Assembly (NCBI RefSeq): GCF_003315135.1
Contig: NZ_QNRK01000016.1
Location: 62,001-126,000, forward strand
DNA: 64,000 nt
Reading direction: 5' to 3'
Source of the DNA: Roseiarcus fermentans
GTDB lineage: Bacteria > Pseudomonadota > Alphaproteobacteria > Rhizobiales > Beijerinckiaceae
Shown here one piece after another: positions 1-51,258 of the stretch (its first letter is position 1; each line of letters opens with the position of its first letter). The notes beneath the pieces are model-generated. The model worked only from the letters and a program-made list of their open reading frames with translations, did no database searches and was not told where the DNA came from. A program made the position numbers and the translations under genes.

Positions 1-2
1 AC

Positions 3-2724: not shown

Positions 2725-2777
2725 ATTGTCGAGCGCCGGCATGGTCATTTCGACACGATGCCGGTGAGGAGAAGAGA

Positions 2778-3512: not shown

Positions 3513-4444
3513 ACAGCCGCCGGGGACTCGTCGCAGTCATCGGCTGCGGATTGATCGGCGAAAGCTGGGCGGGGCTGATGACCGCCTACGGTCATGACGT
3601 CCTGGCCTGGGATCCCTCGCACAAGGCGCTTGACGGCTTTGTGAAGCGCGTCGGCGCGGCGCGCGCGCAAGCGCGCGAGGCGCAGCCTGGTCTGGAAGCC
3701 GGCGAGGGCGCGGTAGAGGTCGTCGCCGACGTCGCGGATGCGGTTCGCCACGCCGATTGGGTCCAGGAGAATGCGCCGGAATCGGCGCCCCTGAAGATGG
3801 AGCTCTACGACCGCATCGAAGCGGCGACGGCGGCGACGACTGTGATCGCCAGCAGCACATCCTCGCTGACATGGTCGGAGCTGTCGCCAAACCTGCGTCA
3901 CAAGAACCGCTTCATCACGGCGCATCCCTTCAATCCGCCGCATCTCATGCCGCTGGTCGAGATCTATGCGCACACGCCCGAGATGGGAGCGGAGGCTGCG
4001 CGTTTCTACCAGGCGCTGGGCCGCGAAACCGTGCTGCTGACGCGCGACGCCGCCGGCCACATCGCCAACCGTCTGGCGTCGGCGTTGTGGCGCGAGGCGG
4101 TCAACATCGTCGCCGAGGGCATCGCCGACGTGGCGTCGGTCGATGCTGCGCTGGTGCACGGCCCGGGCCTGCGCTGGTCGGTGCTGGGCGCGCATATGGC
4201 CTACCATCTGGGCGGCGGAGCCGGCGGCATCGAGCATTATCTGCGCCATCTCGGTCCCAGCCAGGAGCGCCGCTGGGCGACACTCGGCAATCCGCGGCTC
4301 ACGCCCGAGGTCTGCGCCCGCCTCGTCGAGGGCGTTCGGGCGGAAGCGAAGGGTCGTTCGATACGGGAATTGGAAGCGCAGCGCGACGCGGCGCTGATCC
4401 GAGTCCTTGCGGCCAGACGCGGAGGCGAGGATGCGGCAGGCTGA
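3509..4444 (+). CDS. 3-hydroxyacyl-CoA dehydrogenase family oxidoreductase
   Basis: 311 residues with an N-terminal Rossmann fold (GCGLIG at 12-17), the ASSTSSL segment (114-120), the catalytic-loop HPFNPP (139-144) and GHIANRL (183-189). These mark the 3-hydroxyacyl-CoA/L-carnitine dehydrogenase/lambda-crystallin family, NAD-dependent oxidation of a 3-hydroxy acid or its CoA ester in the cytoplasm. The length fits the short single-substrate forms rather than multifunctional FadB. It overlaps both neighbours by 4-14 bases, showing it is part of the same transcript. Substrate unknown; a carnitine-like or 3-hydroxybutyrate-like compound is possible. Confidence 0.85.
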   Translation: MNSRRGLVAVIGCGLIGESWAGLMTAYGHDVLAWDPSHKALDGFVKRVGAARAQAREAQPGLEAGEGAVEVVADVADAVRHADWVQENAPESAPLKMELYDRIEAATAATTVIASSTSSLTWSELSPNLRHKNRFITAHPFNPPHLMPLVEIYAHTPEMGAEAARFYQALGRETVLLTRDAAGHIANRLASALWREAVNIVAEGIADVASVDAALVHGPGLRWSVLGAHMAYHLGGGAGGIEHYLRHLGPSQERRWATLGNPRLTPEVCARLVEGVRAEAKGRSIRELEAQRDAALIRVLAARRGGEDAAG

Positions 4445-5174
4445 GCCGCAGGCCCGCATCGCCCTGATCCATGCGCTGGAGGAGTCCGTCGCGCCGGCGC
4501 GCGCCGCTTTCGCGACCGCCTGGCCGGAGGCGTACTGCTTCGACTTGCTCGACACCTCGCTCGCAGTCGACCGCGCCGAACGCGGCCTGCTGGATCAGGC
4601 GATGATCGAGCGCTTCCGCACGCTCGCCGACTACGCCATGGCGAGCGAAGGTCACGGCGGCAGGACGTCCGGCATTCTTTTCACCTGTTCGGCGTTTGGT
4701 CCGGCCATCGACGCGGTGAAGGCCGCGACCGACGTCCCGGTGCTGCGACCCAATGAATCGGCCTTCGAACAAGCCCTGGAGGCGGGCTCGCGTCTCGGCC
4801 TCATCGTCTCCTTCGGCCCTTCGCTCGAGTCGCTCGAGGACGAACTCGGCGCCATGGCGGCGGAACGGGGCCAGACCCTGACGGTCCGCTCGTTGCTGGT
4901 CGATGGCGCGCTCGCGGCGCTCAAGCAGGGCGATGGCGCGACGCACGATCGCCTCGTCGCCGCCGCCGCGCGCAAGCTCGCCGATGTCGATGCGATCATT
5001 CTCGGGCAGTTTTCCCTCGCCCGGGCGCGGGGAGAGATCGAGCGCCATGCAGGGCCGCCGATCGTGACCACACCGCAGAGCGCCGCCGAGGCGATGCGGC
5101 GAAAAATCATGGCGCGGGCAAGCCCATCCGGTGCGATCGGCGCCCGTGCGCTTTCACAGGATTCCCTTCGATGA
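4431..5174 (+). CDS. Asp/Glu/hydantoin racemase superfamily protein lacking the second cysteine
   Basis: 247 residues with the two-lobed Asp/Glu racemase-like arrangement. The first catalytic-type cysteine is present in LFTCSAFGP (Cys86), but the equivalent position in the second lobe reads IILGQFSLA (about 190-197), with no cysteine. Two-base racemases need both, so this protein is more likely an isomerase, decarboxylase or lyase of the superfamily, or uses one base only. ATG 4431 overlaps the previous stop by 14 bases and the stop overlaps the aminotransferase start (ATGA at 5171). Placement beside hydantoinase genes makes a hydantoin-racemase ancestry attractive, but the missing residue argues against plain racemase activity. 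Confidence 0.7.
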   Translation: MRQAEPQARIALIHALEESVAPARAAFATAWPEAYCFDLLDTSLAVDRAERGLLDQAMIERFRTLADYAMASEGHGGRTSGILFTCSAFGPAIDAVKAATDVPVLRPNESAFEQALEAGSRLGLIVSFGPSLESLEDELGAMAAERGQTLTVRSLLVDGALAALKQGDGATHDRLVAAAARKLADVDAIILGQFSLARARGEIERHAGPPIVTTPQSAAEAMRRKIMARASPSGAIGARALSQDSLR

Positions 5175-6589
5175 CCGTTTCCGTATCTCCATCCGCCAAC
5201 TTCTCGCTCGAGGAGCTGGACAAGCTCAGCCTGTTCCATCCCGTCACCTCGATCGCAGACGTCCAGAAGAACGGACCTCTCATCTACGCAAAGGCGGGCG
5301 GCGTGCGCATGCGTGACCATCACGGTCGCGACCTCATCGATCTCGGCGCCGGCCTCTGGTGTGTCAACGTCGGCTACGGCCGCCCCGAGATCGCCGACGC
5401 CGCCGCGGCCGCGATGCGCAACCTCAGCTACTACCACACCTTCGGCGGCGCCTCGAACGAAGCGACCATCTGTCTCGCCGACCGCATTTTGTCGCTGCTG
5501 CGCGAGCGGGCGGGCGCCGGCCATCTGGCCCGCGTCTTCTTCGGCTCGTCGGGCTCCGACGCCAACGACAGCGCCTACAAGCTGATTCGCTACTATAACA
5601 ATTTGCTCGGGCGGCCGCAGAAGAAGAAGGTCATCTCGCGTCTCGGCGGCTATCACGGCGTGACTTACGCCAGCGGCAGCCTGACCGGCATTTCCGCCTA
5701 TCACACCGCGTTCGACATGCCGATCGAGGGCGTCTTGCACACGGCGTGTCCGCACTACTATCGCTTTGGCGAGGACGGCGAGAGCGAGGCGGCGTTCTCC
5801 GACCGCATCGTCGCCGACCTCGCAGCCATGATCGAGCGCGAGGGGCCCGAGACGATCGCCGCATTCATCGCAGAGCCGGTGATGGGAACCGGCGGCGTGC
5901 TCCTGCCGCCGGCCGACTACTTCGCCAAGGTGCAGGCGCTGCTCGACAAGCACGACATTCTGTTGATCGCCGACGAGGTGATCACGGGCTTCGGCCGCAC
6001 GGGGCAGTGGTTCGGATCCGGCGCCTACGGGCTGAAGCCCGACATCATCACCATGGCGAAGGGCATCACCAGCGCCTATTTCCCGGTCTCCGCAACCGCG
6101 GTGTCGCAGCGCGTCTGGCGTGTCCTGGAAGAGGCCTCGCCGCGCATGGGCGCGGTCATGCACGGTTTCACCTATTCCGGCCATCCGGTCGGAAGCGCCG
6201 TCGCAATGGCCAATCTCGACATTGTCGAACGGGACGATCTGGTCGCCAAGACGGCTGAGAACGGACCTTACATGCTGCGGCAGTTGCAGGCGCGTCTGGC
6301 CGAAAATCCCTATATCGGCGACGTTCGCGGCGTTGGCCTGATGATCGGCGTCGAGTTCGTCGCCGACCGAGGTTCGCGGCGCGCGTTTTCCGCCGGCCTC
6401 GGTCCGCATCGTCTGGTCGCCAGGCATGCGCTGGAGCGCGGCGTGCTGACGCGCGCGCTTCCCTTCATCGACGTCAATTCGTTTTCGCCGCCGCTGTCGA
6501 TCACCCGGGCGGAAATCGACGAGGGCGTCGATCGCTACGTGACCGCCCTCGCCGACGCGATGCCCGCGCTGCACACCCTCGCGTCCTAG
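5171..6589 (+). CDS. Class III pyridoxal-phosphate aminotransferase
   Basis: 472 residues, full length for omega-amino-acid:pyruvate type aminotransferases. The PLP-anchoring segment ADEVITGFGRTG (268-279) and the Schiff-base lysine in TMAKGIT (Lys297) are intact, and the phosphate-binding GSSGSDAND (125-133) is present. It would move an amino group from a terminal amine or beta/gamma-amino acid to pyruvate or a 2-oxo acid, producing a semialdehyde. The next gene is an aldehyde dehydrogenase 16 bases away, the classic pairing for oxidising that semialdehyde. Substrate could be beta-alanine, GABA, taurine or a related amine. Confidence 0.9.
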   Translation: MTVSVSPSANFSLEELDKLSLFHPVTSIADVQKNGPLIYAKAGGVRMRDHHGRDLIDLGAGLWCVNVGYGRPEIADAAAAAMRNLSYYHTFGGASNEATICLADRILSLLRERAGAGHLARVFFGSSGSDANDSAYKLIRYYNNLLGRPQKKKVISRLGGYHGVTYASGSLTGISAYHTAFDMPIEGVLHTACPHYYRFGEDGESEAAFSDRIVADLAAMIEREGPETIAAFIAEPVMGTGGVLLPPADYFAKVQALLDKHDILLIADEVITGFGRTGQWFGSGAYGLKPDIITMAKGITSAYFPVSATAVSQRVWRVLEEASPRMGAVMHGFTYSGHPVGSAVAMANLDIVERDDLVAKTAENGPYMLRQLQARLAENPYIGDVRGVGLMIGVEFVADRGSRRAFSAGLGPHRLVARHALERGVLTRALPFIDVNSFSPPLSITRAEIDEGVDRYVTALADAMPALHTLAS

Positions 6590-6605
6590 AATTCGGAGAC
6601 GGATC

Positions 6606-8039
6606 ATGCTGAACCGCAACTGGATCGCTGGAGAATGGTCGCAAGGCGGCGGCGCCAGCGTGAACCTCAATCCGAGCGACACGCGTGATGTCGTCGGTGA
6701 ATATGCATCGGCGAATAAGGAGGACGTCGAGCGCGCCGTTGAAGCCGCAGCCGCGGCGTTTCCGGCCTGGTCGCGCGCTTCGCCGGAATTCCGCTCCGAT
6801 ATTCTCGACCGCGTCGGCGCGGAGATTCTCGCTCGCCAGGATGAGCTTGGCCGCATCCTGTCGCGCGAAGAGGGCAAGACGCTGCCTGAAGGCGTCGGCG
6901 AAGTGATCCGAGCCGGCCGCATCTTCAAGTATTTCGCCGGCGAGGCGCTTCGCATGAACGGCGAGCGTCTCGACTCGGTGCGTGCCGGAATCGAGGTCGA
7001 AATCCTGCGCGAGGCCGAAGGCGTTGTCGGCGTCATCACGCCCTGGAACTTTCCCATCGCCATTCCCGCCTGGAAGATCGCCCCGGCGCTGGCCTTCGGC
7101 AACACCGTCGTGTTCAAACCGGCGGACCTCGTGCCCGGCAGCGCCTGGCTGCTGACCGACATCCTTGTCCGCGCCGGCGTTCCGGCCGGCGTGTTCAATC
7201 TCGTCATGGGGAAGGGGTCGGTCGTCGGCGCCGCCATCGTCGATTCGCGCCGCGTCAAGGCGGTGAGCTTCACCGGATCGGTCGCGACGGGTCGGCGCAT
7301 CGGCGTCGCGTGCATGGAGCGCGGAAAGAAGGTCCAACTCGAACTCGGAGGCAAAAATCCGCTCATCATCGCCGCCGACGCCGATCTGGAAGTCGCTGTC
7401 AACGTGGCCGTCAACGGTTCGTTCTTCTCGACCGGACAGCGCTGCACCGCATCGAGCCGCCTGATCGTCGAGGATGCGATCCACGACCGCTTCGTCACGC
7501 GAATGGTCGAGGTCATGGCCAACTTGAAGGTCGGCGACGCCCTGAAGTCCGATACCGATATCGGGCCCGTGGCGAGCGAGGCGCAGCTGCGCCAGGACCT
7601 CGACTATATCGACATCGGAAAAAGGGAAGGCGCGAGGCTCGTGGCCGGCGGCGAGACCGTGAAACGCGACACCAGCGGCTACTTTCTGTCGCCCGCGCTC
7701 TTCGTGGACAGCGCCAACGCCATGCGCATCAACCGCGAGGAAATCTTCGGCCCCGTGGCGTCGGTCATCCGCGTGCGCGACTATGAAGAGGCCGCGGCGG
7801 TCGCCAACGACACCGAGTTCGGCCTGGCGTCCGGCATCTGCACCACTTCGCTGAAGACCGCCTCCGACTTCAAGCGCCGATCGCAGGCCGGGATGGTGAT
7901 GGTCAACGTGCCGACCGCCGGCGTCGACTACCACGTCCCGTTCGGCGGCCGGAAAGGCTCGTCGTATGGGCCGCGCGAGCAAGGCAGCCACGCGCGCGAA
8001 TTCTACACCGCGTTGAAGACCGTCTACACGCGCCCTTGA
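6606..8039 (+). CDS. NAD(P)-dependent aldehyde dehydrogenase (semialdehyde type)
   Basis: 477 residues with all catalytic features: TPWNFP (145-150), FTGSVATGR (222-230), general base Glu246 in LELGG and nucleophile Cys280 in STGQRCTASS. The GQRCTASSR context resembles 2-oxoglutarate-semialdehyde and related dehydrogenases more than betaine or acetaldehyde enzymes. Start ATG 6606 follows GGAGACGGATC. Located between an aminotransferase and an SDR in one operon, it most likely oxidises the semialdehyde released by the aminotransferase. Confidence 0.9.
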   Translation: MLNRNWIAGEWSQGGGASVNLNPSDTRDVVGEYASANKEDVERAVEAAAAAFPAWSRASPEFRSDILDRVGAEILARQDELGRILSREEGKTLPEGVGEVIRAGRIFKYFAGEALRMNGERLDSVRAGIEVEILREAEGVVGVITPWNFPIAIPAWKIAPALAFGNTVVFKPADLVPGSAWLLTDILVRAGVPAGVFNLVMGKGSVVGAAIVDSRRVKAVSFTGSVATGRRIGVACMERGKKVQLELGGKNPLIIAADADLEVAVNVAVNGSFFSTGQRCTASSRLIVEDAIHDRFVTRMVEVMANLKVGDALKSDTDIGPVASEAQLRQDLDYIDIGKREGARLVAGGETVKRDTSGYFLSPALFVDSANAMRINREEIFGPVASVIRVRDYEEAAAVANDTEFGLASGICTTSLKTASDFKRRSQAGMVMVNVPTAGVDYHVPFGGRKGSSYGPREQGSHAREFYTALKTVYTRP

Positions 8040-8058
8040 CGGGTGGGGAGCTGGAACC

Positions 8059-8820
8059 ATGAAAAAGCAACTCGAAGGCAAGGTTGCGATTGTCACGGGC
8101 GGGTCGCAGGGAATCGGCGAAGCGATCGCCAAGGGCTACGCCCGCGAAGGCGCCAGGGTCGCGATCCTCAACCGCAGCGCCGAAAAGGCGAAACGCGTGG
8201 TGGACGAGATCGTTCAGGATGGCGGCGAAGCGATCGCGGTCGCTTGCGACATTGGCAGCGTCGCGCAGATCGACCGCGCGGTCGCCGAAACGCGTAGCCG
8301 TCTCGGCGACATCGACATCCTGGTGAACAATGCCGGTTCCTATCTGATGACGCCCCTGGGAGAGACCGAGGAACGTACGGTCGAGCAGATGCTCGACGTC
8401 AACATAAAGGGCGTGTTTTTTCTGTGCCAGGCCGTGCTGCCGGATTTTCTCCGCGCCGGCGAAGGCGTCATCATCAACATCGGCTCGATCTTCGGCAATA
8501 CGGGCTTTCCCGGCTCGGCGATCTATTGTGCGACCAAGGGGGCTGTCTCGCTGCTCACCAAGACCTTGGCGCTCGAACTGCGCGACCGCAACATCCGCGT
8601 CAACAGCATCGCGCCGGGCTGGTTCGAAACACCCCTGAACGAGGAATACCGCGCGACCAACGAGGAGTTCATGCGTCGCGCCGACGAGCGCTTTGGCGGA
8701 AAGGGCGCCTGGATGCGGCCCGACGAGATCACGGGAACGGCCGTCTTCCTGGCCTCGCCCGGCGCCAGATCGATCATGGGGACCACCGTGTTCGTCGATC
8801 GCGGCTGGTCCGCCTACTGA
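8059..8820 (+). CDS. Short-chain dehydrogenase/reductase
   Basis: 253 residues, classical SDR: cofactor-binding TGGSQGIG (13-20), NNAG (90-93), catalytic Ser143, Tyr156 and Lys160 (YCATK). Oxidises or reduces a hydroxy/keto group with NAD(P). It is the last gene of the left operon, 19 bases behind the aldehyde dehydrogenase, preceded by GGGTGGGGAG. The C-terminal ASPGARSIMGTTVFVDRG is normal for the family. Substrate not predictable. Confidence 0.88.
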   Translation: MKKQLEGKVAIVTGGSQGIGEAIAKGYAREGARVAILNRSAEKAKRVVDEIVQDGGEAIAVACDIGSVAQIDRAVAETRSRLGDIDILVNNAGSYLMTPLGETEERTVEQMLDVNIKGVFFLCQAVLPDFLRAGEGVIINIGSIFGNTGFPGSAIYCATKGAVSLLTKTLALELRDRNIRVNSIAPGWFETPLNEEYRATNEEFMRRADERFGGKGAWMRPDEITGTAVFLASPGARSIMGTTVFVDRGWSAY

Positions 8821-9434
8821 AGCGCTCGTGGCGATGTCGCTTTCGCCGAACGCGAGCGTCAGGCCGGTCATCGGAACGATGGTCGCCAGGACGAACGTCC
8901 CGGCCGGGCGCCGCACCGATCCCGGGACCGAATCCGGCATGGACGAGCCTGGGGCATAGCCGGCGCGAAGGCCGGCGCGACAGGACGCTCGTGCGATGAG
9001 ATCGGCCGCACGCCGATGAACACGGTGCAGCGACCGTGACGGGTCCGCCGTTTGCACGGCGATCGGGGAGAGACCGCCAGGCCCGGAAAGAGCCCATTTC
9101 AACGGCGGCTTGGTCTGCGCGCCTCGCCGTCACGCCTTCGCTGTTCGCGAAGACCATGGCGATCCGCGCTCCCGGAGGAGCGAGCGATACGCGAGCGGGA
9201 TCGATGGCGCGAATTTATCATCTTTGCCCGTTCAGACCGGTTGGCTAATCGACTCAACAGGAAGTCCTTGCTCAGGCAACCGAATCTCGGCCGCCTGGCG
9301 TCGGGGAGCGGCCTGTCGCCGGGAGGAGAGCATGAGCGCCTTGGGGTCGATGCGGCAGAGCCGCGAACGTCTGTCGCGAGCCGCAGACGGAGCGCCGCCC
9401 GTCCTCGTGACCAAGCGCGGACCGGAGTTCGATC
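8821..9434. other. Gene-poor stretch between the hyu operon and the hydroxylase
   Basis: 614 bases with no convincing long gene. It contains one GCCGGC-GCGAAG-GCCGGC stem-loop near 8959 without a T-run, and near its right end a strong Shine-Dalgarno followed by a 37-codon frame (9332-9445, listed separately). No convincing sigma-70 promoter pair was found. Confidence 0.5.
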
Positions 9435-9445
9435 ATGACCGCTGA
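9332..9445 (+). CDS. Possible 37-codon leader or small protein overlapping the hydroxylase start
   Basis: An ATG at 9332 stands one base behind GGGAGGAGAG, the best ribosome-binding site in this neighbourhood, and opens a 37-codon frame ending at 9445, 11 bases inside the hydroxylase gene in another frame. The predicted peptide (MSALGSMRQSRERLSR...) is basic and has no recognisable domain. It could be a translational-coupling leader for the hydroxylase or chance. No homologue is known to me. Confidence 0.25.
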   Translation: MSALGSMRQSRERLSRAADGAPPVLVTKRGPEFDHDR

Positions 9446-11105
9446 GCAGGTCGACGTTCTGATCTGCGGCGCGGGTCCGGTGGGCCTCGCCGCCGCCATC
9501 GAGCTCGGGCGTCGCGGCATACGCTGCCTTGTCGTCGAACGCCACGAGCGTGTCGGCCGTTCGCCGCGGGCGAAGACCACCAACGTCCGGACGCGGGAGC
9601 ATCTCAGGCGCTGGGGGATCGCCGACGCGCTGCGCGCCGCCTCGACAATGGCGCCGGACTATCCGTCGGACATCGTCTTCGCGACCCGCATGAACGGTCC
9701 GCTTCTGGCGCGATTCGAAAACGCGCTCGACTGCAATCCCGCCCCGAACAATCTCTATTCGGAAGCGGCGCAATGGGTCCCGCAATACGTGCTCGAGGAG
9801 GTGCTGCGTCGGCACGCGGTTTCGCTGCCGGGCGTGACGATCGCCTTCAATACCGAGCTCGTCGGGATCTCCGAGCGGGATCATAGCGTCGTCGCCGAAG
9901 TCAGAGACAATTCGAGCGATCTCGCGCGAAGAATCGAGAGCGCATACCTGATCGGCGCCGACGGCGCCCGGAGCGCCGTTCGCGAAGCGATCGGCGCGAC
10001 GATGGTCGGCGAAGGCGCGTTCTCGAGAAACTTCAACGTGATCTTCCGCTCCCCGGATCTGGCCAAGCGCCACGCCCACGGGCCGGCGATCATGTATTGG
10101 ATGGTCAACGAAGATGTCCCCGCGATCCTCGGGCCAATGGACGCGACGGGGCTCTGGAGCTTTGGAGTGACCAAGCTCCGTGACGATGTCGATCCGGCGA
10201 CCGTCGACCCGGTCGATCTGATCCGCCGCGGGACGGGGCTCGCCGATCTCGAAGTCGAGGTTGTCGCGACGGACCCGTGGGTCGCGCATCGCCTCGTGGC
10301 CGATCGATACGGGTCGCGCCGGATCTACCTCGCCGGGGACGCCTGCCACTTGCATCCGCCGTTTGGCGGATTCGGCATGAACATGGGCGTCGGGGATGCG
10401 GTCGATCTCGGTTGGAAGATCGCAGCGACGCTCTCCGGATGGGGCGGCCCCAATCTGCTGTCGAGCTACGAGGCCGAGCGCCGGCCCATCCACCAGCGCA
10501 CGATCGCCGAGGCGGTGATCAACTACAGCGCGGTCGGCAACCAACTCGTCCGGCCGGGTCTCGAAGACCCCGGGCTCGTTGGAGAGGCGACGCGCCGCGA
10601 GGTCGGCGACTTGATCGAGGCGACCAAGATCCGTGAGTTCAAGACGCTCGGAGTCGTCCTCGGCGCACGTTACGCGGCCTCGCCCGTCATCGTGCCGGAC
10701 GGAAGCGAGCCCCCGACGGACCATTTCATGCTCTATACGCCGTCGGCCCATCCCGGATGCCTCGCGCCGCACCTTTGGTTGCGCGACGGCTCATCGCTCT
10801 ACGATCATTTCGGACCGGACTTTACCCTTCTCGTCACCGCGGGCGATGCGCGGGATGGACAGGCTCTCGCTGTGGCGGCGAGCGCGCTCGGCGTTCCGAT
10901 CCGGATCGTGGCGCCTTCGGACTCGCGGCTCGAGGACCGGTATCAGGCGCGGTTCGCGCTGATCCGTCCCGATCAGCATGTCGCCTGGCGCGGAGCGGCG
11001 ATTCCCGAGCGCCCCGACGAACTGCTCGCGCGCGTAACGGGGAACTTTGCTGGACCGGTCGAGGCCGCGATCCGCATCCGAGAGCGTGCGGGGGCGGCGG
11101 CATGA
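9435..11105 (+). CDS. FAD-dependent aromatic hydroxylase (PheA/TfdB/MhpA type)
   Basis: 556 residues of the class A flavoprotein monooxygenase fold: dinucleotide-binding GAGPVG (12-17) and the FAD/ribityl motif AGDACHLHPPFGGFGMN near residue 300, plus a C-terminal thioredoxin-like segment. Such enzymes use NAD(P)H and O2 to hydroxylate phenols or phenylpropionate-like acids. The stop overlaps the downstream MFS transporter start (ATGA at 11102), a strong hint that the importer carries the substrate. GGAG lies about 8 bases before ATG 9435. Exact aromatic substrate unknown. Confidence 0.88.
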   Translation: MTAEQVDVLICGAGPVGLAAAIELGRRGIRCLVVERHERVGRSPRAKTTNVRTREHLRRWGIADALRAASTMAPDYPSDIVFATRMNGPLLARFENALDCNPAPNNLYSEAAQWVPQYVLEEVLRRHAVSLPGVTIAFNTELVGISERDHSVVAEVRDNSSDLARRIESAYLIGADGARSAVREAIGATMVGEGAFSRNFNVIFRSPDLAKRHAHGPAIMYWMVNEDVPAILGPMDATGLWSFGVTKLRDDVDPATVDPVDLIRRGTGLADLEVEVVATDPWVAHRLVADRYGSRRIYLAGDACHLHPPFGGFGMNMGVGDAVDLGWKIAATLSGWGGPNLLSSYEAERRPIHQRTIAEAVINYSAVGNQLVRPGLEDPGLVGEATRREVGDLIEATKIREFKTLGVVLGARYAASPVIVPDGSEPPTDHFMLYTPSAHPGCLAPHLWLRDGSSLYDHFGPDFTLLVTAGDARDGQALAVAASALGVPIRIVAPSDSRLEDRYQARFALIRPDQHVAWRGAAIPERPDELLARVTGNFAGPVEAAIRIRERAGAAA

Positions 11106-44734: not shown

Positions 44735-45435
44735 GGCGCCCGTCCCTCCGTGCGCAGCGGCTTCCGGCGCAGCGAGGCGACCACCTCGCCGATGATCGAC
44801 ACCGCGATCTCGGCCGGGCTCACGGCGCCGATGTCGAGGCCGATCGGCGCGTGGATGCGCGCCAGCGCCTCATCGTCGAAGCCCAGCGCCCGCATGCGCT
44901 CGATCCGCTTGGCGTGCGTCTTCTTCGATCCGAGCGCGCCGATGTAGAAGCAGTCGGCCCGAAGCGCGAGGACGAGCGCGGGATCGTCGATCTTGGGATC
45001 GTGGGTGAGCAGACAGATGGCGGTGTAGCGATCGGGCGGCGCGGTCGCCAGCGCCTCGTCCGGCCATTCCGCGACCACGGGCGTGTCGGGAAAGCGCTCG
45101 GGCGTGGCGAAGGCGGTGCGCGGATCGATGACGGTCGGGTCGAGACCGGCGATGCGGGCCATCGGCGCGAGCGCCTGGGAGATATGGACCGCGCCGATCA
45201 GCACGAGCCGCGGCGGCGGCGCCTGGACGGTGAGAAAATATTCGACGCCGTCGAGGGCGAGCGCGCCGCTCTTGCCCATGCGCAACGCCTGGTCGAGGCG
45301 CTCGCCGAGCGGGTCGGCGGCGAAGCCGGACGCCTCGACGAACCGCTGACTGCCGTCGTCGAAGCGCGTCACCATCACGCCCGCCCGGCGCTCGCGCCGC
45401 GCCGCGTTCATCGCCTTCAGGACATCGAGCCGCAT
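44731..45435 (-). CDS. XdhC Rossmann-domain maturation protein
   Basis: 234 residues equal to the C-terminal XdhC/CoxI half: LVLIGAVHISQALAPMA (nucleotide-binding), DPRTAFATPERFP, LLTHDPKIDDPAL and YIGALGSKKTHAKR. XdhC proteins bind the molybdenum cofactor, help sulfurate it and insert it into xanthine-oxidase-family enzymes. The start overlaps the stop of the small XdhC N-terminal gene (TGATG at 45433-45437), so the protein is split into two co-translated parts here. Confidence 0.87.
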   Translation of the reverse strand: MRLDVLKAMNAARRERRAGVMVTRFDDGSQRFVEASGFAADPLGERLDQALRMGKSGALALDGVEYFLTVQAPPPRLVLIGAVHISQALAPMARIAGLDPTVIDPRTAFATPERFPDTPVVAEWPDEALATAPPDRYTAICLLTHDPKIDDPALVLALRADCFYIGALGSKKTHAKRIERMRALGFDDEALARIHAPIGLDIGAVSPAEIAVSIIGEVVASLRRKPLRTEGRAP

Positions 45436-45758
45436 CAGTCGAGCCTCTCGACGTAAACCCGGATGCGGCCGCCGCACGACAGGCCGACGCGCCAGGCGGT
45501 CTCGTCAGCGACGCCGAACTCCAGCATGCGCGGCGCGCCGGTGGCGATCACCTCGCCCGCCTCCTCGACCACCGCGCCCTCGACGCAGCCGCCGCTGACC
45601 GAGCCGAGGAAATCGCCGTCGGCGTCGATGACGAGATGCGACCCGACCGGCCGCGGCGCCGAGCCCCAGGTCTCCACCACCGTCGCCACCGCCACCCCCC
45701 GTCCCGCCTCGCGCCAGGCTTCCGCCGCCGCCAGTACGTCGTCCTCGCGTGAGATCAT
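45435..45758 (-). CDS. XdhC/CoxI N-terminal domain protein
   Basis: 107 residues covering only the XdhC_CoxI domain: GRGVAVATVVETWGSAPRPVG, SVSGGCVEGAVVEEA and the cysteine-containing GLSCGGRIRVYVE. ATG 45758 is chosen behind GGGGAGGAACGCACGG; the long upstream frame is not supported. First gene of the maturation operon xdhC-N, xdhC-C, moeA-like, mocA. It likely serves both the IorAB-type and Cox-type enzymes of this window. Confidence 0.86.
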   Translation of the reverse strand: MISREDDVLAAAEAWREAGRGVAVATVVETWGSAPRPVGSHLVIDADGDFLGSVSGGCVEGAVVEEAGEVIATGAPRMLEFGVADETAWRVGLSCGGRIRVYVERLD

Positions 45759-46231
45759 GCCGTGCGTTCCTCCCCGTCGTTGGGTCGGCAGGATGGCCCC
45801 GGTGCGGCCGGCCTGCAAGCCCACGTTCTCAGGCGAAGCGGTCGCCCGGCCCGGGAGGGGACGCGGATCCCGTTCCGACGTCCGTTCTGGCGGACACGCC
45901 TGCCGTCCGCAACCCGGTCCGGAACGCGCACACTCCGCCCAATGCGGGTATTCCGACCTGGGAACTCCGACGGCCGGTCTCGACGTAGAGTTTCCCTTGC
46001 AGAAAGCGACTGCGAACGGCGCGAGCGGTAGGCTATCCGGACGTTCCCAGATCGCATGCAACGTTTTCGCCAGGAATTAACAATATCCGCGGCTCGGTCA
46101 CGCTGCGCGAACCGCCGCAATCCGAAGTTTCGGCGTCATTCATTCGTAAGGTGACCCGAGCGGCGCAAGCCCGACTTTTCGCCACTCTGGGCCGAACGCA
46201 TCGCCGACATCGGACTACGAGAGCAACCACT
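45759..46231. other. Intergenic boundary between maturation operon and low-GC patch
   Basis: 473 bases without a supportable gene. The base composition changes visibly from about 46070 rightwards (AT-richer). No integrase, tRNA or direct repeat marks the edge. No convincing promoter was found for the xdhC operon. Confidence 0.45.
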
Positions 46232-47218
46232 TCATTGACTCCAAAGCCCACAGGCCGCCGATTGCTTCTCAACGTAAACTGGTCCAGTTCGCAGAATGCC
46301 TTGACAGTAGTAGGTATAGTGCATCTGACCGATCAAATCTTTGTGCGATTCTTCCCACATTCCTTTGCTCGGGTCGCCTGAGCCAGGAAGTAGATCTATA
46401 CGCGCATTTGGATTGCCGCCTAACGTCGACACAATCAATTTAGCACATTCATCCGATTCATTGTGGCCTCCGGGTAGTTCGCCGCTGTTCGAGGTCCAAG
46501 GCGTCTCCGAGCTCCATCTCTCGACGCCGTGAGATGGCGCGCGACACGACGCGTAGCAGGCATTGTCATAAGGAACGCCTACATCGATGCCGACGCGAAC
46601 ACCCCTCTTCTTCAAAAGATTCAAAGCAAGCGCGATTGGTATCAGATCATTGTTGCCGCCAGCAGGCGTGCCGCTGTGAACAAGCCCAATTACGTTTCCA
46701 GATTCGTTGAATACCGGACCGCCACTGTAGCCGTTCCGAAGAAAACCGTCGGCCTTATAGAGCCCGTCCGGCGTAGAAACATTGTTGATGTTAATTTGTG
46801 CCGGAGTGAGGCCGTCCTGGCCTGGGAAGCCGATCACCAGCGCCCGGTCCAGCGGATGAACGTCTGCCGTTGTCATGGTCACCGCATAACGACACGATGC
46901 CGATTGCGGGAGTTGCCACGCCGCGACGTCCGATGCTTCATCTATTTCGCGTGACTGAAGCGGAAAACGCGTTCCTTGCCTCTGACCGATTACTGCCCAT
47001 AGGGTTTGCCCGGCAGCAGGTTTGATATGAGCGGCCGTGACGATATAGCCGTCGTGAGAGACGATAAAACCTGTTCCGCTATCGATAAATTGCCCGGCCG
47101 AGTCGGTGACTTCAAGATATACAGTTCCATGAGTGTTGTTCGCGAGAATGTCGCTTGCGGTTGCAGCGAGACCTGGACACGCGAGCATGCTCAGTAAGGT
47201 AGCAAGAAAGCTCCTCAA
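46232..47218 (-). CDS. Exported trypsin-like serine protease
   Basis: 328 residues. An N-terminal signal peptide (FLATLLSMLACPGLAA, cleavage near 19-20), then a chymotrypsin-fold domain with His64 (TAAHI), Asp97 (EASDVAAW) and Ser165 (NGYSGGPVF), all three catalytic residues. The remaining 120 residues hold several cysteines and no known domain. Start TTG 47218, fixed by AGGAGG seven bases upstream on the minus strand. Eleven bases after the Cys-peptidase gene, so co-transcribed with it. Lower GC than its surroundings. Substrate unknown. Confidence 0.82.
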   Translation of the reverse strand: MRSFLATLLSMLACPGLAATASDILANNTHGTVYLEVTDSAGQFIDSGTGFIVSHDGYIVTAAHIKPAAGQTLWAVIGQRQGTRFPLQSREIDEASDVAAWQLPQSASCRYAVTMTTADVHPLDRALVIGFPGQDGLTPAQININNVSTPDGLYKADGFLRNGYSGGPVFNESGNVIGLVHSGTPAGGNNDLIPIALALNLLKKRGVRVGIDVGVPYDNACYASCRAPSHGVERWSSETPWTSNSGELPGGHNESDECAKLIVSTLGGNPNARIDLLPGSGDPSKGMWEESHKDLIGQMHYTYYCQGILRTGPVYVEKQSAACGLWSQ

Positions 47219-47229
47219 GCGGAGACCTC

Positions 47230-47994
47230 CTATACGATCGAAAAGTAGCCGTTAAGCTTATAGATGCAAGCAACGTATTCCCCGCCTACATGGCGGTGGA
47301 CATCAAACGGCGTTGTCAGGAATTGCCGCTCAGAAATGATGCTGGAATGCCCATCTGCCGACTGGTTTCCTCCAATGACTCGGATTGTGTTTGCGCCTGT
47401 CGTTTCTTCGAAAAAAGCGACGTGTCCGATACCGAGACTCTTGCCGGATTGCTTATCATAGCAGGTGAACACGACCAGGTCCCCCTGTTTAGGAGTGTCA
47501 ACGCGTGGAAGGATCCCCGAATTAGCGAAGGATTGGGAGGCTGCGCTGTTGGTGCCCTTCTTATTGTTGCGCTCGATGCACCAGTTCACAAAGGCAGCGC
47601 ACCAATCTACCATATCGTTATTCACGCGAAGGCTGGTAGCGGAGAAAAATTCCTTGACGAGCGGGTTCCACGCTTGCGGGGCCGGCCATTGTGAGATGGC
47701 GTCTGGATCGCTTTTGGCAAAGCGCGTGATGAAGCTCTTGGCGACATCAAATGCCGTGGGCCCCTTGGGGGTCGCATTGATGATGGCTGCGGCCTTGGAA
47801 CGCTGGGCTTCGGTAGGAGGGCTGTAGCCAAACAGCTCTTCGTTATCAATCGAGTCAATGGGCGGAAACGCGAGCTGCTGAAAGGGAGTGTCTTGGCCGA
47901 CGATGGGATCGGTCTCGTCGGCATGTGCGACGAGCGACCGCAGAACAAAAGGGGCGGCCAGCATGGAAAAATTGATAATACGGCGCGAGATCAT
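47230..47994 (-). CDS. Exported TIGR02594/CHAP-like cysteine peptidase
   Basis: 254 residues. The N-terminal segment (MISRRIINFSMLAAPFVLRS) is a signal peptide, possibly of Tat type (SRR). The C-terminal half has the papain-like triad Cys132 (VDWCAAFVNW), His191 (GIGHVAFF) and Asn210 (IGGNQS), the TIGR02594 arrangement related to CHAP and NlpC/P60 murein peptidases. GGGAGG precedes ATG 47994. The neighbouring gene encodes a lysozyme/SLT-like protein, supporting a cell-wall role. Confidence 0.8.
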   Translation of the reverse strand: MISRRIINFSMLAAPFVLRSLVAHADETDPIVGQDTPFQQLAFPPIDSIDNEELFGYSPPTEAQRSKAAAIINATPKGPTAFDVAKSFITRFAKSDPDAISQWPAPQAWNPLVKEFFSATSLRVNNDMVDWCAAFVNWCIERNNKKGTNSAASQSFANSGILPRVDTPKQGDLVVFTCYDKQSGKSLGIGHVAFFEETTGANTIRVIGGNQSADGHSSIISERQFLTTPFDVHRHVGGEYVACIYKLNGYFSIV

Positions 47995-48118
47995 GTCCTA
48001 ACCTCCCAATTATGTCTACGTCACTAGTCATGGTATCGCAAACGCGGCGGTGCCTGAAGGCTTAGAGAAGGCAGGTACCTGAAAGAGAAAGTGGTTCAAG
48101 CCAATAATCTTAAATTCC

Positions 48119-48994
48119 TTATAGCGCCGAGCAGATGCTGGGGTTCTTCTCAACGTAGGCTTGCACCTGGCGCAACATAAGATCACAATTAGGATGCAAC
48201 TCTACTTGATGATGGATGATCGGTCCGAACTCTCCATTCTCTTTTGTTGGGCCCGCGTGTGTACGAAGAACGACCACCCCGAATTCGATCGCGAAAGCTG
48301 GGCAACTCTTTGTCAGCTTTTGCCAGTCCAATCCCGGCGGCTGCCCGACCGGATTGCTGTCTGCGTCTGGACAATGGGGATTCTGGCTTTTCCGAACTCG
48401 GCAAACGATTCCCTTGAATTCGTCACGCAAGCAACCGCTCTTGTCAGTGGTGTAACGAGCAAATAACATCCCAAGCGATGGACTGTATTTTTGCGCGCCG
48501 TAGGAGGTTTGGAAGAGACCGGCCTCGGCGCTATTGCCGTCGTTGAAACAGGCGCTGACGTCGCGCCCTTCGCAATATTCACCCGAACTCTCCCGCATGC
48601 CGAGCCCGACCAGAAGCGTATACGCATGGCGAAGCGTATCCACGCCGGCCACGTCGTTGCGCATTCCAGCGGCCTCGAAATCCTGCTGGTAGACGACCAA
48701 GCCGTCCCCGTCGCCCTGCGCGGCGCCGGCCGCACTTGAAGCAACTTGCACATCCGCACGTTCAGGATGGCATACAGCGCGTGCGAAGATCTGGGCGACA
48801 CCGGGAATGTAGCCGGCCGGCGGTTTTCCTCGTCCCTTCCAACTGTAGGCCGCACATTCGGACTTCGACGCGATATCGCGGATATTTGCGAGGCCGCCTA
48901 GAGCCGCTCGCTGCGCGGCCTCCTGCGCGAAGGAGCCGGCCGCCAGCACCATCCAAAGCAACGCCGAAATGATGGAAAGCCTAATTTTACGCAT
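48119..48994 (-). CDS. Exported lysozyme/SLT-like protein, weakly recognised
   Basis: 291 residues. A clear signal peptide (IRLSIISALLWMVLAAGSFA, cleavage near AQ-EA) precedes a domain with MRESSGEYC (Glu135 as possible catalytic acid) and AEAGLFQTSYGA (157-168), the E...GLFQ pattern of transglycosylase/lysozyme folds. Many cysteines fit an exported, disulfide-bonded protein. ATG 48994 is preferred to the adjacent GTG 48997. It lies 124 bases upstream of the Cys-peptidase gene and may head the same transcript. Assignment rests on the motif alone. Confidence 0.65.
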   Translation of the reverse strand: MRKIRLSIISALLWMVLAAGSFAQEAAQRAALGGLANIRDIASKSECAAYSWKGRGKPPAGYIPGVAQIFARAVCHPERADVQVASSAAGAAQGDGDGLVVYQQDFEAAGMRNDVAGVDTLRHAYTLLVGLGMRESSGEYCEGRDVSACFNDGNSAEAGLFQTSYGAQKYSPSLGMLFARYTTDKSGCLRDEFKGIVCRVRKSQNPHCPDADSNPVGQPPGLDWQKLTKSCPAFAIEFGVVVLRTHAGPTKENGEFGPIIHHQVELHPNCDLMLRQVQAYVEKNPSICSAL

Positions 48995-49006
48995 CACAGA
49001 TCACTT

Positions 49007-49018
49007 CTGATATATCAG
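49007..49018. promoter_or_regulatory. Palindrome upstream of the SLT-like gene
   Basis: CTGATATATCAG is a perfect 12-base palindrome 12 bases before the ATG at 48994. It could be an operator, or supply a TATATC-like -10; no -35 is obvious. Confidence 0.35.
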
Positions 49019-49526
49019 CGGTATTTAATAACGGATGGATCGCCTAGTCAACATTCATTTCATCACGTCTGGGCAGCAGACGACCGCGTGTTTCGTGAAG
49101 TTTGTTGTAGGCGTATTGTCGCTTGTGCAACTCCAGGTTCAAGTTCACTGCCTGATCACATTCGCCCAGGGTCGGAGCGGCGTGATCACGAGGACCCTCC
49201 AGAACGGCAAATAATGGCACCCTGCTGACGTACTTGAGCGATCGGGACCGGGAGCAAAAGACCCCATTTGTCGCGTTCGCCAAGCCACCGGCCTACGCCC
49301 GCTATGTGCGCAGTCCAGCCGTAGCCGACTCGGCGGCCGAAAGCGCACACTTGGCGCAATGCTGCCTTGTGATTCACGCCCGGTTCGGCGCGGAAACTGA
49401 GAATCCGGGGCAAAGAAGACCCGAAGGCGTCTTCGGCGAGCGTGCGACTCCCTGGCCCGGGTTATCGCTTCTCGGCCGCCCTGCGGAGGGCGCCGCGGCC
49501 GCGCGAACAGGGGAACGAACAACGTG

Positions 49527-49555
49527 TTGCGAAAAACGGAAATATAGACTATAGT
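49527..49555 (+). promoter_or_regulatory. Sigma-70-like promoter reading into gene-free DNA
   Basis: TTGCGA (49527-49532), 17 bases, TATAGT (49550-49555). Transcription would start near 49562 and run into about 475 bases with no plus-strand gene, towards the coxE 3' end. A small RNA or antisense transcript is possible. Confidence 0.4.
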
Positions 49556-49668
49556 ATTTCGATTGGGCGAGATCGTTGCGCGCGGTCGCGCTCCGCTGTT
49601 TGAACCGTCGAGAGCGACGCGCTCGGTTTCCGGCTCTGGCCCGAGCGGAGCCAAACGCGGCGATTCGC

Positions 49669-49905
49669 GTGGAAATTCCGTCGCAAACGGCTGAAAGCGC
49701 TGAAAACAGGCCAAACCGTTCGGCCGCCGAGCGAAAGGCGGCGCGGGCTGACGGCGGATGCGGCGCCCAGATCGCCCGGCTCGACGGGTGGAACCGAAGC
49801 TGACGCCTGCGGGAGAAGAGGAATCCGCCCGGAAATTCCGCGGCATGCCATTGAAAACCTTGAAAACGCGCCCGGCTGTCGGGCGCCCCGAGAGAGAAGC
49901 CGGCG
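49669..49905 (-). repeat. Two degenerate copies of an intergenic repeat, about 163 bases apart
   Basis: On the plus strand, GGAAATTCCG followed by TGAAAGCGCTGAAAACAGG (copy 1, from about 49672) and GGAAATTCCG followed by TTGAAAACCTTGAAAACGC (copy 2, from about 49833) share order and spacing, then GGCCGCCGAGCGAAAG against GGGCGCCCCGAGAGAGAAG. Similar over roughly 70 bases. Confidence 0.55.
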
Positions 49906-50037
49906 ACAAGAGGGCGTCCGACGGCGGCGGCGCGAGTTTCGGACAGGTTTGGGCGCCCAAGTCCCTGAAAGGATGGCGCGCGCGCCAGGACTGCACGCCG
50001 CCCCGGAGACCGGCGTTCGGATCGCTTGCTCCTGCGC

Positions 50038-51258
50038 TCACGCCGACGCGTCCAGCCACGCCTGCGGGGCCTTGCCCGCTTCCCGACCGCCCGCGAGGGT
50101 CACGCACAGGTCGGCCATGCTGGCGAGATTGTGGATCGGGCGGAAGGCGTCGACATGCGGCAGGATCGCCCGCACCCCTTGCGCGCGCGCCGAGAATCCG
50201 TCGAACCGCAGCAGCGGGTTGACCCAGATGACGCGGCGGCTCGACCTCTTGAGCCGCTCGACCGCGCGGCCGAGCTCGCCGACCCCCTCGCGCTCGAGAC
50301 CGTCGGTGAACAGAATCACGATCGCGCCCTGCCCCAGCACCCGCCGCGCCCAGTCGCGGTTGAAGCGTGTGAGGGCGTCGCCGATGCGGGTTCCGCCCGA
50401 CCAGTCGAGCGCCAGCTTCGAGCACTGGGCGAGCGCCGCGTCGGGGTCGCGGGCGCGCATCGCCCGGGTGACGTTGGTCAGCCGCGTTCCGAACAGAAAG
50501 GTCGAAACCCGCCGCGTCTCGCCCAGCGCGTGGAGAAAGTGAAGGAACAGCCGGGTGTATTCGCTCATCGAGCCGGATATGTCGCACAGCGCCACCACCG
50601 GCGGGGCGCGCTCGAGCGGCGCCCGGAAGGCGAGGGCGATCGGGCCGCCCGGCTGCAGCGACCGCCGGAAGCTGCGGCGCGGGTCGATCCGGGCGCGGCC
50701 CGCGCTCGGCGCCAGACGCCTCAGGCGGCGGCGGTCGTCCGGCATGACCATCGCCCGGATCAGCTTGCGCGCCGCCTCGATCTCCGCCGCCGTCATCTGA
50801 GCGAAGTCCTTGGCGCGCAAGATCTCCTGGTCGGACACGGTGAAGCGGGCGTCGAGGTCGATCGACGGGGCGGGCTTCTCCTCGACCGGCTTCGACTTGA
50901 ACAGCGCGTCGGCGACCCGCGTCGCGCCGGCTTCGGCGGACCTGGGCTTGCGCTCGCCCGGCGCCTGCGGCGACATCATCGCGATCAGCTTTTCCAGCAG
51001 GCCCCTGCGCCGCCAAAAGATCTCGAACGCCTGATCGAACAGCAGGCTGTGCTCGTGCTTCTTGACGAACACCGCATGCAGCGTGGTGTAGAAATCGCGC
51101 CGGTCGCCGAAGCCCGCGGCCTCGACCGCGGCGAGGGCGTCGAGCACCGCGCCGGGCCCGAGCGGCACGCCCGCCTCGCGCAGGGCGCGGGCGAAATGCA
51201 CGATGTTTTGCGCCAGCGCGCCGCCGCCGGTGGGCGCTGGGGTGGAAAGGTCGGTCAT
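50038..51258 (-). CDS. coxE: CoxE-type VWA-domain protein
   Basis: 406 residues. The N-terminal half holds LVHFARALREAGV-type sequence (NIVHFARALREAGVPLGPG); the C-terminal half is a von Willebrand A domain with the metal-ion site CDISGSMSEY (about residue 222) and FTDGLER. CoxE acts with the AAA ATPase CoxD on maturation of the molybdenum-copper or molybdenum site in Cox enzymes. ATG 51258 is chosen, with GGGGG upstream. It is separated from coxD by a 110-base gap holding a palindromic repeat. Confidence 0.88.
   Translation of the reverse strand: MTDLSTPAPTGGGALAQNIVHFARALREAGVPLGPGAVLDALAAVEAAGFGDRRDFYTTLHAVFVKKHEHSLLFDQAFEIFWRRRGLLEKLIAMMSPQAPGERKPRSAEAGATRVADALFKSKPVEEKPAPSIDLDARFTVSDQEILRAKDFAQMTAAEIEAARKLIRAMVMPDDRRRLRRLAPSAGRARIDPRRSFRRSLQPGGPIALAFRAPLERAPPVVALCDISGSMSEYTRLFLHFLHALGETRRVSTFLFGTRLTNVTRAMRARDPDAALAQCSKLALDWSGGTRIGDALTRFNRDWARRVLGQGAIVILFTDGLEREGVGELGRAVERLKRSSRRVIWVNPLLRFDGFSARAQGVRAILPHVDAFRPIHNLASMADLCVTLAGGREAGKAPQAWLDASA

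What the first reader, a model, noticed from the sequence alone, without database searches (positions are those of the whole stretch)
46232..48994. Lower-GC patch encoding three exported hydrolase-like proteins
The sequence shows three consecutive minus-strand genes with signal peptides: a lysozyme/SLT-like protein (Glu135, GLFQ), a C-H-N cysteine peptidase (Cys132/His191/Asn210) and a trypsin-fold protease with complete triad (His64/Asp97/Ser165). Base composition is visibly AT-richer than the flanks, and the long antisense open frames seen over other genes here are mostly missing. Murein hydrolase, murein peptidase and protease in one transcript is a combination I do not know as a named system. 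It could serve predation, competition, envelope remodelling or processing of a partner. Function is inference; the folds are established families.
Basis: partly seen in the sequence, partly recalled or inferred. Interest (0 to 1): 0.72.

Follow-up and report, generated by a model that had tools for sequence, protein, structure and literature searches.

The report
Protease-paired wall-cutting enzyme cassette
A piece of foreign DNA in this bacterium carries three apparently exported enzymes, two that should cut the bacterial cell wall and one that cuts proteins; the protein-cutter and one wall-cutter form a gene pair that recurs on plasmids and may work as a protease-controlled cell-lysis switch.

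Summary
The three genes are real and lie in a low-GC insertion of about 4.25 kb (45778-50027) between coxE and xdhC/coxI. Seven relatives have those two genes next to each other or within 1.1 kb, without the cassette.

The unit that recurs is not the trio but P2-P1: a CHAP peptidase with a twin-arginine-type signal and a ~100-residue N-terminal region, 11 bp from a trypsin-like protease. This CHAP family touches a trypsin-like or, in one lineage, caspase-like protease gene in 7 of 12 lineages (8 with a motif-only case), against at most 2 of 43 CHAP-only control loci. Protease kind changes; the pairing stays.

P3 belongs to an unnamed lysozyme-like family (no Pfam or NCBIfam match; PHROG 33367, function unknown), common in viral contigs and often fused to amidases, CHAP or wall-binding domains. 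Its model (pLDDT 90) resembles lysozymes, with best Z only 6.

Best reading: a protease-gated periplasmic lysis module, a cell-wall counterpart of published protease-activated pro-nuclease immune pairs. Pairing and domain identity rest on sequence; export is read by eye; activation and a role in defence are inferred. The full trio was seen only here.

The parts
45778..50027 (.). Insertion of about 4.25 kb between coxE and xdhC/coxI; the corresponding gap in relative G780 is about 51 bp
   Evidence: blastn against relatives' coxE-xdhC junctions: homology with G780 stops at 50028 and resumes at 45777; 7 of 7 fetched relatives with both genes on the stretch lack P1-P3 there
46232..47218 (-). P1: trypsin-like serine protease (TTG start, signal peptide by eye), triad H64/D97/S165, unassigned C-terminal region of about 125 aa
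   Evidence: Pfam Trypsin_2 1.8e-17; best NCBIfam model MarP family 2.6e-12, below its cutoff; residues; 61% identical partner gene in the M. oryzae plasmid
47230..47994 (-). P2: CHAP cysteine peptidase with twin-arginine-type signal (M-I-S-R-R), N-terminal region of about 100 aa, C132/H191/N210
   Evidence: Pfam CHAP 2.4e-10; TIGR02594 63.8 bits, just below cutoff 70.55; R4 R5 C132 H191 N210 invariant in an alignment of 7 full-length members
48119..48997 (-). P3: single-domain member of an unnamed lysozyme-like family (signal peptide by eye; E136, GLFQ 160-163)
   Evidence: PHROG 33367 1.1e-44, no Pfam/NCBIfam match; AlphaFold model pLDDT 90.4; VIA-align list; E136 in 79 of 80 and E158/Q163 in 80 of 80 aligned sequences
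49942..50003 (.). Dispersed repeat of this genome at the coxE side of the insertion
   Evidence: 14 further partial copies at 80-93% identity elsewhere in the genome

Best explanation
A horizontally acquired, exported lytic cassette. Its core is a two-gene unit: a Tat-type exported CHAP murein peptidase kept inactive or restrained by its N-terminal region (inferred), and a Sec-type exported trypsin-like protease that processes and activates it when triggered (inferred). P3, an exported lysozyme-like glycosidase, would cut the glycan strands while the CHAP enzyme cuts peptide bonds, so that together they dismantle the cell's own wall from the periplasm. The most likely use is triggered self-lysis, as in abortive infection or plasmid/community defence (inferred). 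Shown by sequence: the genes, their catalytic residues, domain identities of P1 and P2, the insertion, and the recurrent CHAP-protease pairing with exchange of protease type. Read by eye: the export signals. Not shown: enzymatic activity, activation, trigger, biological role.
For: (1) Recurrent pairing. Full-length relatives of P2 lie 0-22 bp from, or overlap by 4-8 bp, a protease gene: M. oryzae plasmid (Trypsin_2 3.4e-18), R. leguminosarum OyaliB p2 (Trypsin_2 2.9e-5, below Pfam's cutoff, annotated trypsin-like), G030 (1.5e-7), G292 (Trypsin 2.2e-12, upstream), A. argentinense p5 (8.3e-17, upstream), and a Rhizobium lineage with caspase C14 (2.0-2.8e-6 in four plasmids). P. marcusii has trypsin motifs only, no Pfam match. 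With the window that is 7 of 12 lineages (6 above Pfam's cutoffs; 8 with the motif case) against at most 2 of 43 CHAP-only controls; Fisher 1.2e-4 for 7/12 against 2/43. (2) A twin-arginine signal in 11 of 12 lineages of the full-length family; of 44 CHAP-only rows 8 have an RR in the first 45 residues and none looks like a signal by eye. (3) A lysozyme-type partner recurs: G030 has a lysozyme-like gene (weak Pfam matches, 0.007 and 0.036) plus a second trypsin in the same gene run; S. terangae has a P3 relative beside GH25 and caspase-GH25, with a caspase-EAD1 gene nearby; G040 has trypsin + GH24-CHAP-CHAP + TIR + nSTAND1. (4) CHAP and P3 are fused in viral proteins. (5) Precedents: protease-activated pro-nucleases with trypsin or caspase partners (PMC12799240, abstract and passages); MarP, P1's best NCBIfam model, cleaves the NlpC/P60 hydrolase RipA (PMC12067865, passages).
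Against: No intact protease partner was found in 4 of 12 lineages (S. meliloti/medicae, P. aeruginosa plasmids, G749, the CB3060 group). No structure shows the P2 N-terminal region blocking the active site (single-sequence model pLDDT 34.6, useless). The review on RipA says the zymogen model and MarP's part in it are debated. No sensor gene was recognised in the insertion. PADLOC has no match for P2 or P3. The trio was seen once only. Lineage grouping is mine; the control neighbour rule differs from that for the cases, and most control flanks are 1.5 kb. The P3 fold match is weak by score: best Z 6.0; Foldseek shows no E below 0.001, its top rows are unrelated folds, and 6 of its 46 rows are lysozyme-like.
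Confidence: 0.4

Rival explanations
1. Secreted antagonism or predation cocktail: the three enzymes leave the cell and lyse neighbouring bacteria or digest prey walls, the protease clearing envelope proteins.
For: Wall glycosidase, wall peptidase and protease is a sensible lytic mix. Bdellovibrio uses a prey-wall lysozyme and a prey-lytic protease (PMC12546842, passages). P3 relatives occur in phages of Bdellovibrio.
Against: Only inner-membrane-type export signals were seen (by eye); the insertion holds no other recognisable gene, so no dedicated secretion or immunity gene. The tight CHAP-protease spacing with exchange of protease type fits specific processing better than a mixture.
Confidence: 0.25
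2. Protease as brake: P1 degrades misfolded or excess P2 (DegP/HtrA-like quality control) and the pair serves regulated wall remodelling of the host.
For: P1's best solved relatives by sequence are HhoA/HTRA1/Deg proteases; a wall peptidase needs control.
Against: Patchy distribution (P2: 1 of 11 genomes of the genus, the own one; P3: 4 of 397 of the order including the own genome), low GC and plasmid carriage of relatives are unlike a housekeeping role; caspase and trypsin partners are unlikely interchangeable quality-control factors.
Confidence: 0.15
3. Passive cargo: phage- and plasmid-derived lytic genes carried without a joint function, the adjacency being chance or recent.
For: P3 is a phage-type domain; the trio was found only here; the insertion has dispersed repeats on its coxE side; 4 of 12 P2-family lineages lack an intact protease partner (and the neighbour calls).
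Against: The pair is kept among P2 relatives with 25-59% identity to P2, in several genera and with tight or overlapping spacing; all three ORFs and named catalytic residues are intact, and P2 and P1 have good ribosome-binding sites.
Confidence: 0.15

Closest known systems
Nuclease-protease pairs of Hachiman/AVAST/Lamassu/DRT and Canu (Tuck et al., Science 2025, PMC12799240; abstract and passages seen)
   Same: A hydrolase gene next to a protease that can be trypsin-like or caspase-like, with the protease kind exchanged between loci; the authors suggest other proteolytically activated enzyme classes may exist
   Different: Here the hydrolase is a peptidoglycan peptidase, not an MBL nuclease; both partners look exported; no STAND, helicase or reverse-transcriptase core is fused to the protease; no activation or defence test exists
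System 3 (NucA endonuclease + trypsin, EAD1) of Kaur et al., eLife 2020, PMC7159879 (section 32 and passages read)
   Same: Mostly alphaproteobacterial; trypsin-like peptidases; EAD1-linked lysozyme-like and papain-like peptidoglycan peptidase effectors are mentioned
   Different: No NucA gene in the insertion; no EAD1 match in P1-P3; the window proteins look exported. An EAD1-caspase gene does lie near the S. terangae P3 relative
MarP-RipA of mycobacteria (PMC12067865, passages seen)
   Same: Periplasmic protease MarP (its family model is P1's best NCBIfam match) cleaving an NlpC/P60-type wall peptidase that has an inhibitory region
   Different: P1 is far below the MarP cutoff (46.5 vs 250 bits); P2 is CHAP-type; the passages seen describe no adjacent mobile gene pair and call the activation model debated
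TIGR02594 / CHAP family endolysins and effectors
   Same: P2's CHAP core
   Different: P2 falls just below the TIGR02594 cutoff and adds a twin-arginine-type signal and an N-terminal region of about 100 aa that the CHAP-only rows do not match
PHROG 33367 (unknown function) and the relatives in Bdellovibrio phages phi1422, phi1402, MAC3UK
   Same: P3 residues 32-291 match the PHROG profile (1.1e-44); phage proteins 28-32% identical over 87-89% of P3
   Different: P3 is a single-domain cellular form with a signal peptide by eye, grouping with L015-L019, L012 and S. terangae; many viral forms carry extra wall domains

Membership tests
Lysozyme superfamily (P3) | Lysozyme-like fold | tested here: inconclusive
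   Good model (pLDDT 90.4). All 50 VIA-align rows shown (85 chains had Z of 2 or more) read by title as lysozyme-superfamily entries, but best Z is 6.0; Foldseek gives no E below 0.001 and 6 lysozyme-like rows among 46
Lysozyme superfamily (P3) | Catalytic-type Glu followed by Ser after a helix, then a G-L-[FM]-Q-like motif | tested here: met
   E136-S137 at the end of helix 119-137 and GLFQ 160-163; E136 in 79 of 80, Q163 in 80 of 80. That this is the catalytic Glu is recalled from GH23, not shown
A Pfam or NCBIfam lysozyme/SLT family (P3) | Match above curated cutoff | tested here: not met
   No family listed at E up to 1 in either library
CHAP peptidases (P2) | Pfam CHAP above cutoff and Cys/His/Asn residues | tested here: met
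   41.2 vs 26 bits; C132, H191, N210 invariant in 7 aligned members
TIGR02594 (P2) | NCBIfam cutoff | tested here: not met
   63.8 vs 70.55 bits
Trypsin-like proteases (P1) | Pfam Trypsin_2 above cutoff and complete triad | tested here: met
   64.9 vs 27.6 bits; H64/D97/S165
MarP family (P1) | NCBIfam NF033740 cutoff | tested here: not met
   46.5 vs 250 bits
Protease-gated nuclease immune pairs (Hachiman/AVAST/Canu type) | Adjacent trypsin- or caspase-like protease | tested here: met
   Window P1, and 7 of 12 lineages of the P2 family with both protease kinds
Protease-gated nuclease immune pairs (Hachiman/AVAST/Canu type) | Partner is an MBL-type nuclease | tested here: not met
   Partner is a CHAP peptidase
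Protease-gated nuclease immune pairs (Hachiman/AVAST/Canu type) | Proteolytic activation of the partner | not testable with these tools
   Needs biochemistry; single-sequence model of P2 unusable
Kaur et al. System 3 | NucA endonuclease in the operon | tested here: not met
   Only three recognisable genes in the insertion, none matching a nuclease in Pfam
Phage lysis cassette or prophage | Neighbouring phage genes or holin | tested here: not met
   Neighbours are coxD, coxE and xdhC genes; no other frame in the insertion looks like a gene by eye; one short frame with a hydrophobic stretch (49035-49214, 59 aa) is on the other strand
Toxin-immunity pair | Adjacent immunity gene | tested here: inconclusive
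   No candidate recognised by eye among ATG/GTG frames of 35 aa or more in the insertion; small or unrecognised immunity proteins are not excluded

The most novel reading that the evidence does not exclude
Bacteria carry a mobile, periplasmic, cell-wall counterpart of protease-gated nuclease immunity: exported pro-CHAP murein peptidases activated by an exchangeable exported trypsin or caspase, sometimes joined by a lysozyme-type enzyme (P3, GH25 or GH24-like), which lyses the infected or invaded cell from its own periplasm.
Probability: 0.33. Interest if true: 0.85.

Novelty: new variant of a known kind. Interest (0 to 1): 0.62.

Why it matters
If true, protease-gated killing in bacteria is not limited to nucleases and pores: the same trypsin/caspase exchange would drive a wall-lysis effector in the periplasm, a compartment where few defence effectors are known (recalled). 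It would give immediate tests (does P1 cleave P2?) and candidate lytic enzymes. Separately, P3 exposes a widespread phage-type wall-hydrolase domain for which the Pfam and NCBIfam copies at hand have no model.

Tried and rejected
Trio as a conserved operon: rejected. P3 was with P2-P1 only here. For 7 close P3 relatives (L012, L015-L019, L050) no CHAP or protease partner was recognised by eye in the ORFs printed within 3.5 kb (printed as first 110 residues, no family scan). phmmer with P1 and P2 found no match in P3-bearing loci other than the own genome's.

P3 as a Pfam SLT/lysozyme member: rejected. P3 profile against PDB sequences: no match up to E = 1. BFVD: no match below E 0.001.

P2 profile against PDB sequences: only weak RNA-binding-protein matches (best 0.0098), taken as chance. 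P2 structure from its single sequence: pLDDT 34.6, not used.

P1 in the order: 15 of 397 genomes at E 1e-10 (own included), but in the other genomes the matches stop by residue 211, so they are other trypsins. In that search and in plasmids the C-terminal region of P1 was matched only in M. oryzae; it has no assigned fold.

P2 in the order: 31 of 397 genomes at 1e-8, of which only own, G030 and G292 proved full-length among the loci returned; in the class 9 of 385 at 1e-10, only own and G749 full-length.

Viral scan with P3 alone found no relative; the alignment scan found 157, of which the best 80 were kept. Rfam: nothing at gathering threshold in 45000-50200. Promoter scan: 5 found against 1.5 expected, not used as evidence. 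No repeat pair that marks the insertion ends was recognised.

Control details: up to two ORFs on either side and either strand, 132 ORFs of 43 CHAP-only loci; L222 (same gene as L217) was dropped before the count. Pfam: Trypsin_2 in 2 and peptidase C1 in 3 ORFs; only 25 of 72 families were shown, so a single caspase match could be hidden. I did not find out which locus holds the second trypsin; the other is the G040 locus, itself a trypsin-CHAP system. S. meliloti M162 and Rhizobium CC1099 CHAP-only genes lie beside C1 peptidases; not counted as pairs. P. aeruginosa NZ_CP115217 was not opened; NXC24 was opened but its downstream gene was not analysed.

Literature: six searches bore on the combination; by titles and abstract starts none listed this system. 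Most subscription papers are not held.
Full report
What is there. All three begin with export-type signals by eye; no signal-peptide program was at hand. P2's is twin-arginine type (M-I-S-R-R). P2 and P1 are 11 bp apart, P3 and P2 124 bp. Cassette GC is 0.553 and the lowest-GC windows of that length in the 64 kb overlap it; GC3 is 0.55-0.64 against 0.90-0.96 in the six flanking genes tested.

Acquisition. The cassette sits between coxE (VWA_CoxE, 4.1e-67) and xdhC/coxI (XdhC_CoxI, 2.8e-27). Of 12 relatives with a coxE match I fetched 8. In all 7 whose stretch holds both genes, coxE and xdhC lie together (about 50-240 bp between matches in five, 0.9-1.1 kb in two) and tblastn finds none of P1-P3; the eighth stretch showed no xdhC. 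Against G780, homology stops at 50028 and resumes at 45777, with about 51 bp between in G780. P2 was found in 1 of 11 genomes of the genus, the own one. The order is Hyphomicrobiales by inference: the contig of 'same order' genome G261 has the length of a named Hyphomicrobiales record that holds the same gene.

P3. No Pfam or NCBIfam family but PHROG 33367, function unknown, 1.1e-44. It occurs in 4 of 397 genomes of the order (own included), 1 of 385 of the class (own), 40 loci over many phyla, 157 viral stretches of which 80 were kept, and in Bdellovibrio phages, in two of which it ends the rightward gene run that holds the tail genes (in MAC3UK followed by one 90-bp frame). Of 64 of the 79 non-redundant relatives scanned, Pfam finds PG_binding_1 in 45, Amidase_3 in 21, PG_binding_3 in 18, CHAP in 7, Amidase_2 in 4, SH3_3 in 4, M23 in 2, M15_4 in 1. 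One cellular protein fuses a possible CHAP/NlpC-like region (my reading only) to P3. The model (80 sequences, pLDDT 90.4, pTM 0.88) gives no Foldseek match below E 0.001; the top rows there are unrelated folds and 6 of 46 are lysozyme-like. Yet all 50 VIA-align rows shown read as lysozyme-superfamily entries, best Z 6.0, rmsd 3.1 over 111 residues. The score alone is weak; the uniform list, the fusions and the conserved E136/GLFQ region (E136 79, Q163 80 of 80) together make a wall glycosidase the best reading. One relative has Gln at 136. In a quick tree the window protein falls in a group of eight cellular forms (support 0.996).

P2 and P1, the recurring unit. Against plasmids, P1 has one match, 61% over its full length, in a Methylobacterium oryzae plasmid, directly after a P2 relative of 59%. 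Full-length relatives of P2 were then collected by similarity to P2 and its relatives, not by neighbours. They make 20 rows (two are the same gene) and, by my grouping, 12 lineages. With an adjacent protease: window, M. oryzae, R. leguminosarum OyaliB (below Pfam's cutoff but annotated trypsin-like), G030, G292 and A. argentinense (protease upstream in these two), and a Rhizobium lineage with a caspase. P. marcusii has trypsin-like motifs only. Without one: S. meliloti/medicae, where an NB-ARC/TPR regulator precedes; the P. aeruginosa plasmids, which also lack the twin-arginine signal; the CB3060 group, where no trypsin remnant was found in two stretches; and G749, whose convergent neighbour is a tricorn-type peptidase. 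In 43 CHAP-only loci, 2 of 132 neighbouring ORFs match Trypsin_2 and 3 match peptidase C1. Fisher test for 7/12 against 2/43: 1.2e-4, with the caveats under Tried and rejected.

Wider pattern. G030 carries, in one same-strand run, a lysozyme-like protein (Pesticin 0.007, Phage_lysozyme 0.036, both below cutoff), a trypsin, two other genes, then CHAP and a second trypsin. S. terangae carries a P3 relative beside GH25 (3.3e-30) and caspase-GH25 (3.2e-13, 5.2e-33), with a caspase-EAD1 gene nearby. G040 carries TPR-S-trypsin, GH24-LysM-CHAP, TIR, nSTAND1-WD40 and an alpha/beta hydrolase in one run, parts like those of the conflict systems of Kaur et al. (section 32 and passages). So wall hydrolases and trypsin/caspase proteases meet repeatedly, at times in immune-like settings.

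Mechanism. The closest tested precedents are pro-nucleases activated by a partner trypsin or caspase (PMC12799240, abstract and passages), whose authors suggest other proteolytically activated enzyme classes, and MarP cleaving the NlpC/P60 hydrolase RipA (PMC12067865, passages, which also say the model is debated). MarP is P1's best NCBIfam model, though far below cutoff. I therefore favour a protease-gated periplasmic lysis module, with P3 adding glycan cleavage. Activation, trigger and role are inferred. Secreted antagonism, quality control and passive cargo remain open.

Verdict.

Noticed in passing
L252 (G040) 1-9528: Immune-like gene run: nSTAND1-WD40, TIR, GH24-LysM-CHAP-LysM-CHAP, TPR-S-trypsin and alpha/beta hydrolase; a phage-lysozyme/CHAP protein as apparent effector.
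   Followed up: partly
L234 (G030) 3204-8715: One same-strand run with two trypsins, a weakly lysozyme-like protein, a collagen-like Gly-rich protein and a Tat-type CHAP.
   Followed up: partly
L007 4950-11183: S. terangae plasmid: GH25, caspase-GH25 fusion, P3 relative, a transposase-like frame (by eye), and caspase-EAD1 on the other strand.
   Followed up: partly
L014/L051 P3 relative: P3 relative with Gln at the putative catalytic Glu, possibly a non-enzymatic or altered member.
   Followed up: no
L188, L192: S. meliloti/medicae plasmids: the P2-family gene follows, by 19 bp, an NB-ARC/TPR-type regulator (with a cyclase part) instead of a protease.
   Followed up: no
L245, L246: CHAP-only genes followed by C1 papain-type peptidases; in L245 the next gene is annotated as caspase, though its partial stretch gave no C14 match in Pfam.
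   Followed up: partly
window 49526-50003: Several short dispersed repeats of this genome beside coxE; one (49942-50003) has 14 further partial copies elsewhere.
   Followed up: no
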